A stretch of DNA of 64,000 nucleotides, from the NCBI RefSeq assembly GCF_001278845.1, contig NZ_CP012590.1, forward strand, positions 2,604,001 through 2,668,000, read 5' to 3'. The DNA is from Actinomyces sp. oral taxon 414. Lineage in GTDB: Bacteria > Actinomycetota > Actinomycetes > Actinomycetales > Actinomycetaceae. Under the pieces are notes generated by a model. That model saw nothing but the letters and a program-made list of their open reading frames with translations. It ran no database searches and had not been told where the DNA came from. Made by a program: the position numbers and the translations under genes. How positions within the stretch are numbered: the first letter of the stretch is position 1; each line of letters starts with the position of its first letter. Below are positions 21,238-26,949 of the stretch, one piece after another.

Positions 21238-22923
21238 TCACCCGAAGGTGAAGGAGTACAGGGACACACCCTCGCCGACCTCGAGCTCGAGCAGGCCCTC
21301 CCGGGTGTCCTGCGTGCTCACGAGCTCGATCGAGTTGGGGACCCCCGAGACGCGGATCGTGCGTTTTTCACCGTTCGCCGTGTAGGTGATGTCCCCCTCG
21401 CCGGAGACGACCAGGTTGACCTGCCGGCCCTGGTAGCGCAGGCGCAGGCGGGCGGGACCGCCGTCGGGCGAGATGGCCTGCGCGGTCACCTTCCACCGTC
21501 CGTCCAGGGAGAAGGTGTCCGCCGCCTGCTCGGCGGGGAAGTCGTACGACGACGTCCCCTCGCTCAGTCGCCCGCCGGCGAATCCGATGGCGCGGGCGGA
21601 GCCGAGGTAGGTCTCGGGGGTGCGCGGGCCGCTGACGTCGGGCTCGTCGTCGGCGAACACCGGGGCGGGCAGCTGCACGCCGGGGTTGGCCTGGCGCAGG
21701 AGCTCGCGCACGAGCCTCTCGGTGGTGGCCTCGCCGCCCTCGCCGAACTTGACCTGGCGCAATTCGCCGCTGGAGTCGGCGAGGTAGTGCGCGGGCCAGT
21801 AGTGGTTGTCGAAGTTGCGCCAGGTCACCAGGTCGGAGTCGACGGCCACCGGGTAGGTGATGCCGAGGTCGGCGGCGCCGCCGCGGACATTGCCGACCTC
21901 CTTCTCGAAGGCGTACTCCGGGGAGTGGACCCCGATGACCTGCAGGCCCGCGTCCCCGTAGACCTCGTGGAGTTTCTGGATGCCGGGGATGGAGCGCTGG
22001 CAGTTGATGCAGGAGTAGGCCCAGAAATCGACGAGGGTCACCTTGCCGGCGCGGTCGGCGTCGGTCAGGGGCTGCTCGCCGGGGGTGTTGAACCAGGTGG
22101 TGATGCCCTCGATTTGGGGCAGCCGCCCGCAGTGGGCGAGGTCGGAGGCGCCGTCGACGCACCGGCCGCCCTCGCCGGCGCCCGCCCCGCCGCGCAGCGC
22201 GTTGTCGATGCCGGCCTGGAGCGGGGCGGTGTAGTCCGGCAGGGCGCGCTGGAGGACGGCCGGCAGGTTGAGGACGAGCGCCGCCGACAGGGCCAGCATG
22301 AGCGCTCCGGCGCTCACGCGCACGGCCCTCTGTCGGCGTCGGAAGGCCTTGAGCCTCTCGGTGAGCCGGCGTCCGGCCAGGGCGAAGGCGAGCAGCGGGA
22401 CGGCGGTGCCCAGGCCGAAGGCGATGGCGAGGGTGATGGTGTCGGCGCCGATCCGGCCGGTGGAGCCGGCGACGGACACGGCCGCGAGCACCGGACCGGC
22501 GCAGGGCACGTACGCGGCCCCCAGGACCAGGCCCAGGAGGAATCCGTTGGAGGGGCCGGCCGAGCCGGATCGCTGGAAGCGCGCGAAGGGGCGCTCCAGG
22601 ATCTCCATGACCTTGGGGATGATCATTCCGGCGCCGATGAGGGCGAGGAGGACGATTCCGGCCCAGCGGATGACGTCCTGCGGCAGGTGCAAGAGGTTGA
22701 GGAGCGTCGACCCCAGCAGGGTGAAGGCGGTGAAGCTGATGACCAGCCCCGCCACGACGAGATACGGCCGCCACCTGGAGGTGGCCGGCGCCTCGTCCCC
22801 GTCCCGGGCGCGGGCGCCCTGGGCGCCGCCGGACAGGAAGATGACCGGCAGGACCGGAAGAATGCAGGGGGAGATGCCGGTGATGAGGCCACCGAGCAGG
22901 CCGATGAGAACGAGACTGACCAT
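21238..22923 (-). CDS. dipZ: DipZ-like CcdA/thioredoxin fusion protein
   Basis: 561 residues. The N-terminal half is a CcdA/DsbD-type electron-transfer membrane domain with [18 protein letters not shown] and [11 protein letters not shown], the paired cysteines that move reductant across the membrane. The second half is an extracytoplasmic TlpA/thioredoxin domain with the redox motif CINC ([11 protein letters not shown]) and [15 protein letters not shown]-terminal beta domain follows ([20 protein letters not shown]). The start at 22923 is set by AAGGAGGAACGAC; an in-frame ATG nine codons upstream lacks a binding site. Probable role: reduction of exported thiols. A SigK-like promoter is seen upstream. 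Confidence 0.9.
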
Positions 22924-22955
22924 GTCGTTCCTCCTTCGCGATCGAGTCACCCCGT

Positions 22956-23143: not shown

Positions 23144-23455
23144 ATGCGTATCCGACGCGTTCTGTCCGCCTCCCTTCTCATCGCCGCCCTCGCGGTCGGC
23201 ACCGCCGCCTGCGGCTCCGCGGACGCCGGGAGGGGCAAGCCGGCCATGCAGCAGACGTCGACGCCCGGCGATGCCATGTCCGACGGCGCGATGTCCCCGA
23301 CGCCCGGCGATGCCATGTCCGACGGCATGAGCGACGGGCGTATGTCCGACGGCGCCGACGACAAGATGAGCGATGCTCCCAGCGGCGCGATGTCCCCGGC
23401 GTCGGGCGGGGCGATGTCCGACGGCGCGAGCAGCAGCGCGTCCAACGGCAAGTGA
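23144..23455 (+). CDS. MSDG-repeat lipoprotein
   Basis: 103 residues. MRIRRVLSASLLIAALAVGT followed by AAC is a lipoprotein signal with Cys23 as the lipid anchor. The mature part is a set of imperfect MSDG/AMSPTPGDAMSDG repeats without cysteine, resembling the pentapeptide MXKDX-repeat lipoproteins seen in other bacteria. AAGGAGATCCC precedes the ATG. It is divergent from dipZ and carries its own SigK-like promoter candidate, so it may be an exported target of SigK. It is a Met/Asp-rich protein; metal binding or oxidant scavenging by methionine is a guess. Confidence 0.75.
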   Translation: MRIRRVLSASLLIAALAVGTAACGSADAGRGKPAMQQTSTPGDAMSDGAMSPTPGDAMSDGMSDGRMSDGADDKMSDAPSGAMSPASGGAMSDGASSSASNGK

Positions 23456-23535
23456 GGCGCCGGCGGCCCGGCGGGTCGCTGCCGGGGCGGCCCGGCGGGC
23501 GAGCTCTTGCGCCGCCGGTCCTCCTCGCGGCTACG

Positions 23536-24441
23536 ATGGGGCTCGTGGAGAGGGAGAGCCTGGAAACCCTTGCGACGGTGCTGGCCGTTACGCGCGTCAA
23601 GGCGCGGCTGCCCCAGCCCGAGCGGGTCCAGGAGCTGCTGGCCGCCGGCGACCCGGGCGAGGTCCTGGATTCCATCTCGCAGCGGACCCTGTTCGACGAC
23701 CCGGTCCTGGAGCGGGCCCGCCGCGACGTCGAGGAGTGGACCGGCCGGGGCATGGGCGTGGTCAGCGTCCTGTCCGAGGCTTACCCGGCGCGCCTGCGCG
23801 ACGTGCGCGAGGCCCCGGCCCTGCTCTACTACGAGGGCTCCCTGGCCGCCGGCGACCAGGGCGTGTGCGTGGTGGGGTCCCGCGACGCCGACGACGCCGC
23901 CCTGCGGGTCGCCTCCCACGTGTCGACCGCGCTGGTCGAGGCGGGCCTGACGGTGGTGTCGGGCCTGGCTACCGGGATCGACGCCGCGGCCCACGCCGCC
24001 GCCCTGAAGGCGGCCGGCCGCACCGTGGCCGTCATGGGCACTGGGCTGGAGCGCACCTACCCGCGCGCCAACGCCCGTCTGCGTGCCGACATCGTCGAGT
24101 CCGGAGGCCTGGTGATGACCCAGTTCGAGCCCGGGGCGGCGGTGAGACGCGCGAATTTCCCCATGCGCAACGCGATTATGAGCGGTTACGGCATCACCAC
24201 CTTCGTCGTGACGGCCGGCGAGCATTCGGGCACTCGTATTCAGGCGGTGAAGGCGGTCGAGCACGGCCGCGGCGTCATCCTGGCCCGCCGCGTTGCGCAG
24301 ACCACGTCATGGGGGCGGGAGATGGCCCGCACGGGCCGCGCGCTGGTCGCCGACGGCACCGACGACATCCTCGCTCAGGTCCACGACCTCCAGGCCGAGC
24401 GCGCCCGGGCGGAGGACCTCCTGCGGGAACTCACCGCATGA
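23536..24441 (+). CDS. DprA-like (SLOG/Rossmann) protein
   Basis: 301 residues. Family signatures of DprA/Smf are present: VVSGLATGIDAAAHAAALKA, MGTGLERTYPRANARL, FEPGAAVRRANFPMRN and TAGEHSGTRIQAVKAVEHGR. It differs from a housekeeping DprA: the residue after FPxRN is Ala instead of Arg, the C-terminal winged helix is missing, and it overlaps a phosphoribosyltransferase gene. The start could be ATG 23536 or GTG 23545; neither has a good binding site. It begins 80 bases after the lipoprotein gene. A DNA-uptake role is possible; a nucleotide-sensing partner of the next gene is the alternative I favour. Confidence 0.8.
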   Translation: MGLVERESLETLATVLAVTRVKARLPQPERVQELLAAGDPGEVLDSISQRTLFDDPVLERARRDVEEWTGRGMGVVSVLSEAYPARLRDVREAPALLYYEGSLAAGDQGVCVVGSRDADDAALRVASHVSTALVEAGLTVVSGLATGIDAAAHAAALKAAGRTVAVMGTGLERTYPRANARLRADIVESGGLVMTQFEPGAAVRRANFPMRNAIMSGYGITTFVVTAGEHSGTRIQAVKAVEHGRGVILARRVAQTTSWGREMARTGRALVADGTDDILAQVHDLQAERARAEDLLRELTA

Positions 24442-25169
24442 CCGGCCCCCTGCCGGACTACTACCGGGCCGCCGTCGTCCCCGGGCAGCTGCGCGCGAGC
24501 CTGTGCGAACTATGCAGAACCCCGACCGGCGATCAGTACAGGTTCTGCTTCAAATGCCACGATTCTTTTGCTCGCCCGAATGCTGCGGGTTTCGCCTGCT
24601 ACGCCATCGGCGGCGATCAGTCCGGGACGGATATGCGCCGGTACAAGGCTTTTCCTCCAGGCGCGCAGGCGCTCGACAATATCCGACTCCTCCTGGAACA
24701 CTGCGTCAATCACCTGGGCTGCGCCGGGCGTCTCGTCGGCGCTGGCATCGACGCGGTGGCAGTCGTACCCAGCCGCACCCACTACGCACCTGGCGCGCCA
24801 AGCCCACTCCAATTCCTGTGCACTAGAATCCTGCCGAGATACTTGCGTCGAATCGATCTGCGTCCTGCCCCCGGCTCGACCTCCGACCGGCGGGTGCACA
24901 CCGATGCCTTCACCGCCCCCGAATGCCGGGATCTGTCGCACGTGCTGGTCGTTGACGACACCTGGGCCAGCGGAGCCACCATGCTGTCCGCGGTGACGAC
25001 GATACAGGCTCGCGGCGCACAATTCACATCGACTCTGGCCCTCGCCCGCTGGTTGAACCCGCAATACTCGCTGACGCACGAACTCATCGTCAACGTTGAG
25101 CGGGTCGACGACTGGAAGAAACCGGAACAGGCATGCCCGTTTACCCTCGACGGCACCTGTCCGACATGA
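24438..25169 (+). CDS. Zinc-ribbon phosphoribosyltransferase-fold protein
   Basis: 243 residues. The N-terminus has two CxxC pairs (Cys23/26 and Cys37/40, CELC and CFKC), a likely zinc ribbon. The rest is a type I phosphoribosyltransferase fold with VAVVPSRTHYAPG and the PRPP-binding loop HVLVVDDTWASGATM. The layout is that of ComF. The ATG overlaps the DprA-like stop by four bases, so the proteins are made together. Base composition (many A/T third positions around 24530-25130) is lower in GC than the neighbours, hinting at transfer. A defence or nucleotide-signalling function is inference. Confidence 0.75.
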   Translation: MTGPLPDYYRAAVVPGQLRASLCELCRTPTGDQYRFCFKCHDSFARPNAAGFACYAIGGDQSGTDMRRYKAFPPGAQALDNIRLLLEHCVNHLGCAGRLVGAGIDAVAVVPSRTHYAPGAPSPLQFLCTRILPRYLRRIDLRPAPGSTSDRRVHTDAFTAPECRDLSHVLVVDDTWASGATMLSAVTTIQARGAQFTSTLALARWLNPQYSLTHELIVNVERVDDWKKPEQACPFTLDGTCPT

Positions 25170-25354
25170 TCACGGCGATCTCAGCATTCCGAATTCGTTG
25201 CAGATATTCGGACCCCGTCAGCGTCAAGACGATCGCTGGAAGGTTATTCGGCGGGCGGTGATGCGGACGCAGGGTGCGGGGCCGGCGTCGTCACGACGTG
25301 CGAGACGCCGTCCCACCATGCGGGGCTAGAGCGACGCAACCGCCCCGCCGCGCC
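25170..25354. other. Intergenic gap with GGAAGGTTATTC motif
   Basis: Convergent gap. It holds one copy of GGAAGGTTATTC at about 25238-25249, the motif found in family A tails. No gene. Confidence 0.4.
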
Positions 25355-25984
25355 TCACAGGTGCAGGTCGGCGTGGGTCAGGTACCCCTGCCCCAGGGCC
25401 CAGGCGAGGATGCCGTCGCGGTCGGCCTCGGCGCGCTCGAGCGCGCGGTCGGAGAAGCCGACCCGGGTCGTGCCGGGCACATACGCCCGGCGCCGACCGC
25501 CGGGGCCGATAACGGTCACGCACGCCCCCCTCGTCCCCCGGGCACCGGCCCACGCCCGGGTTCCGAGAGCGCCGGGCACCTCCCGCCACGGCAGGCGGCG
25601 CCGCGTGAACAGCGTGCGCACCGCCAGCCCGTCGGCGTCGGCGCGGGTGCGCCCCGCGAGCGCGTTGAGGACGGTGGCGCACAGGAGGAGGCCGACGCCG
25701 CCGGTCAGCAGCATCCACCAGCAGGCGCCGCCCTCGATCAGGCCCATGACGGTCCCCAGGAGCATCGCCGCACCCACAGGGGCGCACAGGAGGAACGTGA
25801 GCAGCCACGACGGCGTCCGCCAGAACCGCCAGGTGAAGGACTCCCGCCCAAGGAGGCCGTTGGGGACGACGGCGGTCGGACCGATCCGCGCACACGTGCC
25901 GGGCGGTATGGAGTACCCGGCCGGGTTGGCGGCGTCGGTGGCCGGGTCCGGGGCCGTCGGGGGCGGTTCCCTGCGGTGGTCCAC
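25355..25984 (-). CDS. PH-like two-helix membrane protein
   Basis: 209 residues. Two adjacent helices (about 55-75 and 80-100: FLLCAPVGAAMLLGTVMGL, WMLLTGGVGLLLCATVLNAL) precede a PH-like domain with RADADGLAVRTLFTRRRLPW and a C-terminal helix ending ILAWALGQGYLTH. This matches bacterial PH_6 proteins such as mycobacterial low-molecular-weight antigen 6. The GTG start at 25984 has AGGGGGA seven bases upstream and lies 11 bases after the menA stop, so it is probably in one operon with menA. Function unknown. Confidence 0.7.
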   Translation of the reverse strand: MDHRREPPPTAPDPATDAANPAGYSIPPGTCARIGPTAVVPNGLLGRESFTWRFWRTPSWLLTFLLCAPVGAAMLLGTVMGLIEGGACWWMLLTGGVGLLLCATVLNALAGRTRADADGLAVRTLFTRRRLPWREVPGALGTRAWAGARGTRGACVTVIGPGGRRRAYVPGTTRVGFSDRALERAEADRDGILAWALGQGYLTHADLHL

Positions 25985-25995
25985 GACTCGTCCCC

Positions 25996-26949
25996 CTATC
26001 TGCTCGCCAGGACGAGCGCCGCGGCCAGGGCGACGCCGTAGAGGAGCTCGTACAGGCCCGCGTCGCGCAGCGCCGGGATGAGCGCCCGGCCGGTGGCGCC
26101 GGCCAGGACGGTGCCACCGGCGCGCGCCGCCGCCGCGCCGAGGGCCGCGATGACGACGGCGAGGGCGACGAGCCAGACGGTCCCCGACCCGCCCAGGGCC
26201 CGGTGCGCCCAGACGATCGCCACCGCCCCCGCGGCCACGGGGACCCACAGCATGGCGATGAAGGCGGCGCGGGCGCGCCCGGCGCCCAGCCGCACCGCCA
26301 GGGTGCGCTTGCCCGCCGCCGGGTCGGTGTCGATGTCGCGCAGGTTGTTGACCATGAGCAGGGAGCAGGCGATGAGGCCGACGCCGCCCGCGGCCGCCCA
26401 CAGCCAGCCCGGGGTGGTCCCGCCCTGGACGTAGGCGGTGCCCGCGGTGGCGACCAACCCGAAGAACACGAACACGAAGACCTCGCCCAGGCCCGCGTAG
26501 CCGTAGGGGCGGGGCCCGCCGGTGTAGAACCAGGCGGCGGCGATCGCGGCGGCGCCCACCGCGAGCAGCCACCACTGGCCGCTGAGCACGACGAGGACCA
26601 GGCCGAACAGCCCGCCGACGCCGAAGCAGCCGAAGGCCGCGAGCTTGACCGTGCGGGGGGCGACGGCGCCGGAGGCGGTCAGCCGCGGCGGGCCGGTGCG
26701 CTCGTCGTCGGCGCCGCGCACGCCGTCGGAGTAGTCGTTGGCCAGGTTGCAGCCGATCTGCAGGGCCAGGGCGACGCCGGCGGCGAGCAGGCTGCGCACC
26801 GGGGAGAAGGCCCCTAGGGCCGCGGCGGCGCCCGCCCCCAGGATGACGGGGGCGACGGCCGCCGGCAGGGTCCGCAGGCGCACGACCTCCGCCCAGCTGG
26901 TGGCGCGCGGGCCCGCACCGGACCGCTGCGCGGTTCCGCTGGCGCTCAT
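25996..26949 (-). CDS. menA: 1,4-Dihydroxy-2-naphthoate polyprenyltransferase
   Basis: 317 residues, an integral membrane UbiA-superfamily prenyltransferase that joins the isoprenoid tail to DHNA in menaquinone synthesis. The first Asp-rich motif is CNLANDYSDGVRGADDERTG (about 87-106) and the second is VNNLRDIDTDPAAGKRTLAV. About eight helices are visible. Length is typical of actinobacterial MenA. Bases before the ATG contain GGAAGAGG. It forms a likely operon with the PH-like gene downstream. Confidence 0.93.
   Translation of the reverse strand: MSASGTAQRSGAGPRATSWAEVVRLRTLPAAVAPVILGAGAAAALGAFSPVRSLLAAGVALALQIGCNLANDYSDGVRGADDERTGPPRLTASGAVAPRTVKLAAFGCFGVGGLFGLVLVVLSGQWWLLAVGAAAIAAAWFYTGGPRPYGYAGLGEVFVFVFFGLVATAGTAYVQGGTTPGWLWAAAGGVGLIACSLLMVNNLRDIDTDPAAGKRTLAVRLGAGRARAAFIAMLWVPVAAGAVAIVWAHRALGGSGTVWLVALAVVIAALGAAAARAGGTVLAGATGRALIPALRDAGLYELLYGVALAAALVLASR

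What the first reader, a model, noticed from the sequence alone, without database searches (positions are those of the whole stretch)
23536..25169. DprA-like protein translationally coupled to a zinc-ribbon phosphoribosyltransferase
Seen: a shortened DprA-like protein (no C-terminal winged helix; FPxRN followed by Ala instead of Arg) overlaps by ATGA with a ComF-like protein having CxxC pairs and an intact PRPP loop. The second gene is lower in GC. Known: DprA has a SLOG-type Rossmann fold proposed to bind nucleotides or ssDNA. Inference: a two-gene nucleotide-sensing or defence module rather than a competence pair. This is my best candidate for an undescribed system.
Basis: partly seen in the sequence, partly recalled or inferred. 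Interest (0 to 1): 0.75.

Follow-up and report, generated by a model that had tools for sequence, protein, structure and literature searches.

The report
ShosTA-like DprA–ComF toxin–antitoxin cassette
Two overlapping genes in an Actinomyces chromosome form a small mobile cassette that most likely works as an anti-phage toxin–antitoxin pair of the already known ShosTA kind, here with a ComF-like enzyme as the probable toxin.

Summary
A short DprA-like gene (23536/23545-24441) overlaps by ATGA a zinc-ribbon phosphoribosyltransferase gene (PRTase, 24438-25169). It is not the housekeeping dprA: the genome has a winged-helix dprA elsewhere. Both genes lie in a 1,855-bp segment that a sister species lacks between the same flanking genes. 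The DprA-like protein belongs to a well-supported clade separate from housekeeping DprA, and most members sit directly beside a PRTase, in actinobacteria, Firmicutes, plasmids and phages. Where only one gene of a pair is damaged it is the PRTase (8 loci against 0 among those judged), as expected of toxin and antitoxin. Two Actinomyces remnants lie beside defence genes. The predicted PRTase fold (pLDDT 95.7) is nearest to ComF and ShosT. ShosTA, a DprA-like antitoxin with a PRTase toxin, is a published anti-phage system, so 'defence module' is supported and 'undescribed system' is not. New here: a ComF-like, zinc-ribbon, HAD-free PRTase that library ShosT models miss, with an RN(A) motif in its partner. 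I call it a new variant of a known kind. Toxicity, neutralisation and phage protection are inferred, not shown.

The parts
23490..25344 (.). Inserted segment (cassette) holding the two genes
   Evidence: Sister genome G021 lacks it: window 20548-23489 matches L099 103-3046 (94% identity) and 25345-27233 matches L099 3050-4938 (96%)
23532..23537 (+). Putative -10 element TACGAT of a leaderless promoter
   Evidence: TACNAT + 7 nt + [AG]TGGAG in window, G015 and G027; the sigma-70 scan found no site; inference
23536..24441 (+). DprA-like (ShosA-type) gene, probable antitoxin/sensor; probable true start GTG 23545
   Evidence: PADLOC ShosA PDLC03961 4e-61; Pfam DNA_processg_A 3.5e-54; clade in tree
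23746..24345 (+). SLOG/Rossmann (DNA_processg_A) domain, residues 71-270
24157..24174 (+). FPMRNA motif (housekeeping DprA has RNR here)
24438..24441 (+). ATGA stop/start overlap (translational coupling)
24438..25169 (+). ComF-like zinc-ribbon phosphoribosyltransferase, 243 aa, probable toxin/effector
24504..24557 (+). CxxC...CxxC zinc ribbon (C23, C26, C37, C40)
   Evidence: nearly invariant in 15 aligned rows, this one included
24948..24980 (+). PRPP-binding loop VVDDTWASGAT
   Evidence: D174, W176 and G179 invariant in 15 aligned rows
25134..25160 (+). C-terminal CPFTLDGTC motif (C233...C241)
   Evidence: C233 invariant, C241 nearly so in 15 aligned rows
21238..22950 (-). Left flank: DipZ-like thiol-disulfide exchange protein
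   Evidence: Pfam Thioredoxin_10, DsbD_TM; found in many genomes of the genus
23144..23455 (+). Left flank: small repeat-rich lipoprotein ending just before the cassette
   Evidence: flank aligned
25355..25996 (-). Right flank: bacterial PH-domain protein, convergent with the cassette
   Evidence: Pfam bPH_6
25996..26949 (-). Right flank: menA-like UbiA prenyltransferase
   Evidence: Pfam UbiA; in 58 of 59 relatives searched

Best explanation
A ShosTA-like toxin-antitoxin / abortive-infection cassette. The ComF-like PRTase is the toxin: with its zinc ribbon and intact Mg-PRPP site it would transfer phosphoribosyl groups to (or drain PRPP for) purines or nucleic acid, damaging nucleotide pools or DNA. 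The DprA-like protein, made first and coupled translationally, would bind the PRTase and/or ssDNA or repair intermediates and hold the toxin in check. Phage replication or shut-off of host expression would tip the balance, releasing the PRTase and stopping the infected cell. Shown here: the genes, the coupling, the conserved linkage, the mobility, defence neighbours of two remnants, the intact active site, the predicted fold, and one-sided decay. Inferred from ShosTA and RqlHI: toxicity, neutralisation, trigger and phage protection.
Against: No experiment. The window PRTase matches no ShosT model at E<=1, only PsyrT at 0.026. E. coli ShosA (phage 10W, the solved-structure type) falls outside the clade on a long branch. 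The ShosA model also hits the genome's housekeeping DprA at 8.6e-43, so the model name alone proves little. Three of 18 PRTase loci have no DprA of their own, and G206 has a ShosA-type DprA with no PRTase found. [quoted passage not shown] This copy does not lie among defence genes in the flanks checked. Some frameshifts may be assembly errors, and loci found through the DprA query could hardly show the reverse damage.
Confidence: 0.75

Rival explanations
1. A nucleotide-signalling immune pair: the PRTase makes a modified nucleotide on infection and the SLOG (DprA-like) protein is its receptor/effector.
For: SLOG domains bind nucleotide signals in ThsA (PMC11204291, abstract in search listings). 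A related PRTase sits beside a ThsA-like SIR2 protein in G148.
Against: The DprA-like protein has no attached effector domain found by Pfam. Loss falls on the PRTase while DprA is kept, the opposite of what a harmless signal-maker with a lethal receptor predicts. ShosA and RqlI are described as antitoxin-like (PMC9122126, PMC4670107, passages).
Confidence: 0.12
2. A selfish addiction module that stabilises itself or its carrier element, without a role against phages.
For: Found on plasmids and phages; PMC10482375 (one passage read) reports ShosTA as tending to be plasmid-encoded in Actinobacteria.
Against: Remnants among restriction and DISARM/Druantia-like genes; the P2-borne DprA-PRTase pair protects against T7 and lambda (PMC9122126, passage read).
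Confidence: 0.2
3. An accessory competence / ssDNA-handling pair (DprA plus ComFC) acting in DNA uptake or recombination.
For: The fold and zinc ribbon of gene 2 are nearest to H. pylori ComF, and ComFC handles incoming ssDNA in transformation (PMC9005727, passages read). The genome has a ComEC homologue.
Against: Separate housekeeping dprA with winged helix; sporadic presence, whole window-type copies in 3 of 37 Actinomyces genomes; carried by phages; winged helix and RNR motif missing; loss of the PRTase rather than of DprA.
Confidence: 0.07

Closest known systems
ShosTA (E. coli / P2-like phages; PADLOC ShosA PDLC03961 and PDLC02997, ShosT PDLC03962 and PDLC03012)
   Same: Adjacent DprA-like and PRTase genes, DprA first in the phage loci read; carried by phages and plasmids; PRTase fold with PRPP site; ShosT is the second-best fold match.
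   Different: The window PRTase has an N-terminal zinc ribbon and a DDTW loop, lacks the HAD domain of the 424-aa ShosT of phage 10W and is missed by both ShosT models. The DprA-like partner has RNA where ShosA of 10W keeps RNR, and that ShosA falls outside its clade.
PsyrTA / RqlHI
   Same: DprA-like protein beside a PRTase; the PRTase domain is required for toxicity when the DprA-like protein is missing (PMC4670107).
   Different: There the PRTase is fused to a RecQ-like helicase and the toxin gene comes first (PMC4670107, section read). Here there is no helicase and DprA comes first.
Competence DprA and ComFC
   Same: SLOG domain; zinc finger plus PRTase, with H. pylori ComF the best fold match.
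   Different: No DprA winged helix, RNA instead of RNR, coupled in one mobile cassette, and present in addition to a housekeeping dprA.

Membership tests
ShosTA | DprA-like partner matched by a ShosA model | tested here: met
   PDLC03961 4e-61; note that the same model hits the genome's housekeeping DprA at 8.6e-43
ShosTA | DprA-like partner in one clade with ShosA, apart from housekeeping DprA | tested here: inconclusive
   Groups with ShosA-type proteins of phages Mana and Riah (99/98), but ShosA of phage 10W lies elsewhere on a branch of length 3.64
ShosTA | PRTase partner matched by a ShosT model | tested here: not met
   No ShosT hit at E<=1; at E<=0.1, 10 of 15 aligned rows (not the window's own) hit PDLC03962 and 12 of 15 hit PsyrT, best 1e-7 and 1.1e-4
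ShosTA | PRTase fold like solved ShosT | tested here: met
ShosTA | Second (HAD/pyrophosphatase) domain of E. coli-type ShosT | tested here: not met
   243 aa, no HAD match; the short 225-aa ShosT of phage Mana has no HAD match either
ShosTA | Toxin neutralised by DprA-like partner; phage protection | not testable with these tools
   Needs expression; only one-sided gene decay was seen
PsyrTA / RqlHI | RecQ-type helicase fused to the PRTase | tested here: not met
   243-aa PRTase with no helicase domain; the genome has a separate PsyrT-like RecQ-PRTase at about C1:988 kb
Housekeeping/competence DprA | C-terminal winged helix | tested here: not met
   No PF17782 hit at E<=1, against 20.7 bits in the genome's own dprA
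Housekeeping/competence DprA | RNR motif and no linked PRTase | tested here: not met
   17 of 18 housekeeping loci show RNR (one gave no motif match) and 0 of 18 have a PRTase profile hit within 2 kb; the window gene has RNA and a PRTase
ComFC | Four-Cys zinc finger plus PRTase domain | tested here: met
ComFC | Role in DNA uptake | not testable with these tools

The most novel reading that the evidence does not exclude
A distinct immune type built from competence parts: a DprA-like ssDNA sensor that lacks the winged helix and the RNR arginine holds a ComF-type, zinc-ribbon PRTase inactive, and on seeing phage DNA lets it modify nucleic acid or bases directly, by a chemistry different from the PRTase-plus-pyrophosphatase chemistry reported for ShosT.
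Probability: 0.25. Interest if true: 0.6.

Novelty: new variant of a known kind. Interest (0 to 1): 0.4.

Why it matters
It extends the ShosTA theme to a family spread through actinobacteria with a ComF-like probable toxin that library ShosT models miss or barely reach, so some DprA genes annotated as competence genes on phages and plasmids are probably antitoxins (inference). It also offers a minimal, HAD-free and helicase-free PRTase with which to ask what PRTase toxins do to DNA or nucleotides.

Tried and rejected
Rejected: 'only dprA of the genome' (one search shows two). Rejected: linkage as chance. Insertion by a visible transposon: no shared 8-mer in direct orientation between the segment's ends, and no annotated or recognised transposase in it, which holds only the two genes; the imperfect inverted repeat at 23452-23480/25330-25358 overlaps the ends of the two convergent flanking genes and is partly present in the site of the sister. 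A G068 PRTase flagged with a stop was not counted as damage, because a single ORF covers profile positions 3-245. Lower GC of gene 2 as proof of separate origin: not pursued; in the other pairs the difference is smaller, and gene 2 evolves faster (dN 0.43 against 0.17 for window versus G015).

Weak or empty: profile comparison of the PRTase alignment with the short-ShosT alignment gave probability 93, E 3.3e-7 over 108 columns, and with ShosT of phage 10W probability 82, E 1e-5 over 50 columns, the PRTase core in both. PDB sequence search with the PRTase profile gave only weak PRTases, best 0.027. Two IMG/VR scans gave one further contig with the pair (L122) and one weak PRTase match (L123). 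No paper describing this ComF-like variant turned up in the nine paper searches. Pu et al. 2025 on ShosTA was not seen itself, only as cited in a review. A second short DprA of an Actinomyces relative (G013, L124) turned out not to be of this type: other motif, no PRTase hit in 6.5 kb.

Rows dropped: the table has 46 rows, which are 46 distinct loci (Frankia counts twice; G060 and M. crocinum are one). By my cut-offs (DprA profile from <=13 to >=290 of 307, PRTase from <=25 to >=240 of 251, each in one ORF) these are 22 whole, 8 with only the PRTase damaged or missing, 2 with both damaged (G056, G008), 3 cut by a contig or record end or without PRTase (C. atrinae, G127, G206), and 11 with divergent PRTase types not judged (B. 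haikouensis, Clostridiaceae, UBA5473, Mana, 10W, G252, G214, G276, phiOH2, Riah, Streptomyces NBC_00829). G252 has a DprA match starting late; counted as the reverse case it would give p 0.039. G016 (fragment only) was not in that table. An earlier count said '15 genomes' and '18 of 18 RNR'; the recounts are 16 genomes and 17 of 18.

Full report
What is there. The window lies in a 3.84-Mb genome held as one contig. The genus is taken as Actinomyces because G015, listed as same genus, has a 61,226-base contig equal in length to the named record of Actinomyces sp. S28M_Sa_3 that carries the same hit. Two + strand genes overlap by ATGA: a DprA-like gene ending at 24441 and a 243-aa PRTase gene at 24438-25169. 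The likely DprA start is GTG 23545, because TACNAT, 7 nt and [AG]TGGAG are shared with two Actinomyces relatives, as in a leaderless transcript (inference; the sigma-70 scan found no site).

The DprA-like protein. It carries the DNA_processg_A/SLOG domain (3.5e-54) and no winged helix. The genome's other DprA has a winged helix and sits in what I read as the usual rnhB-comM-dprA-xerC-rpsB neighbourhood (gene names mine, from the translations). FPMRN is followed by Ala. In 17 of 18 housekeeping DprA loci the motif is RNR (one gave no motif match), and none of the 18 has a PRTase profile hit within 2 kb; 14 of those loci carry only 1.5-kb flanks. The other DprA-like proteins mostly have RN[A/V/T/G/S/K/E], but ShosA of E. 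coli phage 10W keeps RNR. A maximum-likelihood tree of 58 rows (41 non-housekeeping, chosen by me for a PRTase or its remains nearby, except G206; 17 housekeeping) puts 40 of the 41 in one clade (99/98) and the window's protein with G015 and G027 (100/99). The exception is ShosA of 10W on a very long branch.

Mobility. Both flanks (dipZ-like and menA-like) are 97% identical at protein level in G021. There the DNA on each side runs through with 3 bases between the two matches, while the 1,855 bp with both genes are missing; gain here or loss there is not decided by this alone. By the coordinates, 22 other Actinomyces genomes have dipZ and menA within 10 kb of each other (one with only part of dipZ); none shows a match to either gene at that place. 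Among 37 genomes of the genus including this one, whole window-type DprA genes (70% identity or more) occur in 3 (G000, G015, G027), fragments in G008 and G016, and the PRTase in 2. Elsewhere such pairs are on phages (Gordonia phages Bosnia and Vasanti; ShosT-type or other PRTases on Burkholderia phage Mana, Pseudomonas phage Riah and phage phiOH2) and on actinobacterial plasmids.

Linkage. The DprA query against 84,980 species genomes gave 8 loci, close relatives only: one housekeeping DprA, and seven of this type, of which six have a PRTase profile hit beside them (Frankia twice over) and one (Clostridiaceae) a decayed partner by my reading. In 296 Actinomycetes genomes, the 17 best ShosA-model matches have an adjacent PRTase profile hit in 14 (four of these PRTases are damaged); of the rest, one is cut by a contig end, one has a PRTase broken after its start, and one has none. 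PRTase hits with E<1e-16 make 18 loci in 16 genomes; 15 have a ShosA-type DprA of their own beside them, and three (the second ones in G229 and G068, and G148) do not. Weaker hits I did not examine, apart from those beside a DprA-like gene. The start of gene 2 lies between -53 and +11 nt of the DprA stop in 12 of 12 pairs measured.

Polarity of loss. In G027 the DprA-like ORF is whole, but the PRTase stops resembling its relatives after about eight codons. Over 46 distinct loci: 22 pairs whole, 8 with a whole DprA and a damaged or missing PRTase (G027, G309, G236, G224, G149, G074, the M. crocinum plasmid, which is G060 by its identical length, and the Ca. M. methanotrophicum plasmid, whose PRTase is in three pieces), 0 the other way, 2 with both damaged, 14 not judged. 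This fits PRTase as the dangerous and DprA as the tolerated partner. The caveats are assembly frameshifts and search bias: a damaged DprA is hard to find with a DprA query. dN/dS (NG86) is 0.2-0.3 for three DprA pairs and 0.5 for one PRTase pair, so both look constrained and the PRTase evolves faster.

Defence context. Beside the G027 remnant lie a PADLOC candidate (PDC-S59, 1.4e-173) and a type IIG restriction enzyme. The G016 fragment lies between a DrmD-like/type IIG pair and a DruE-like helicase. In this window the flanking genes checked are ordinary chromosomal ones.

Known work. PMC9122126 (Cell Host Microbe 2022; passages read) reports a P2-borne DprA plus PRTase pair protecting against T7 and lambda, and names shosTA, syrTA and rqlHI as toxin-antitoxin precedents. 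Russell and Mulvey 2015 (PMC4670107; abstract, one section and passages read) show that RqlH is genotoxic through its PRTase domain without RqlI, that PRPP-pocket mutants lose toxicity, and that the two proteins interact; [quoted passage not shown] A 2025 review (PMC12593503, one passage) summarises Pu et al. 2025: ShosT is a PRTase and pyrophosphatase disturbing purines, ShosA binds DNA, and T7 Gp0.7 is a trigger. PMC5512222 (passages) discusses PRTases of selfish elements and the helicase-PRTase/DprA coupling. PMC10482375 and PMC10023795 (one passage each) report ShosTA in actinobacterial plasmids and prophages; whether their detections include this ComF-like type I could not tell.

Verdict. 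The system is not undescribed in kind. It is best called a ShosTA-like module with a ComF-type toxin; I do not file it as ShosTA proper because the ShosT model test and the HAD feature were not met.

Noticed in passing
L121 2380-3939 (G000:C1 about 987.9-989.4 kb): The same genome carries a RecQ-type helicase with a C-terminal PRTase (PsyrT/RqlH-like, PADLOC 1.1e-79 for the part read). The DprA searches found only the housekeeping dprA and the window copy, neither near it, so it seems to be an orphan RqlH as reported for Gram-positives.
   Followed up: partly
L084 3426-5757 (G148): A zinc-ribbon PRTase of the same broad family overlaps a ThsA-like SIR2 protein (PADLOC ThsA1 1.3e-58) instead of a DprA: a possible partner swap.
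   Followed up: partly
L040 45-14796 (G016): A fragment of the DprA-like gene lies between a DrmD-like helicase plus type IIG restriction-methylase and a DruE/DpdJ-like helicase, inside an apparent defence island.
   Followed up: partly
L046 3986-8861 and L125 (Ca. Mycobacterium methanotrophicum plasmid): The PRTase appears split: an N-terminal piece beside the DprA-like gene and the rest, in two frames, about 4 kb on, with vsr, a GIY-YIG nuclease and a cytosine methylase in between.
   Followed up: partly
L124 2533-3432 (G013): Another short (299-aa) DprA without RNR or RNA motif and without PRTase, next to what reads like a DNA adenine methylase: a different extra DprA in an accessory region of an Actinomyces relative.
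   Followed up: partly
L028 5437-9466 (Frankia sp. AgB1.9): Two diverged copies of the DprA-PRTase pair stand divergently on opposite strands.
   Followed up: no
L092 1469-3956 (G073): Reversed order, PRTase first then a long-branch DprA-like protein: a possible separate subtype.
   Followed up: no
L081 3135-4067 (G229): A second, convergent PRTase of the family lies next to a complete pair, without its own DprA.
   Followed up: no
window 23144-23455: Small predicted lipoprotein whose mature part is mostly degenerate AMSDG/MSDG-type repeats, next to the dipZ-like gene.
   Followed up: no
L111 3761-4963 (phage phiOH2): The Firmicute version has a longer PRTase partner with a C-terminal Top1-type zinc ribbon (Pfam 3.7e-5, below cut-off), so zinc ribbons may occur at either end of these probable toxins.
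   Followed up: no
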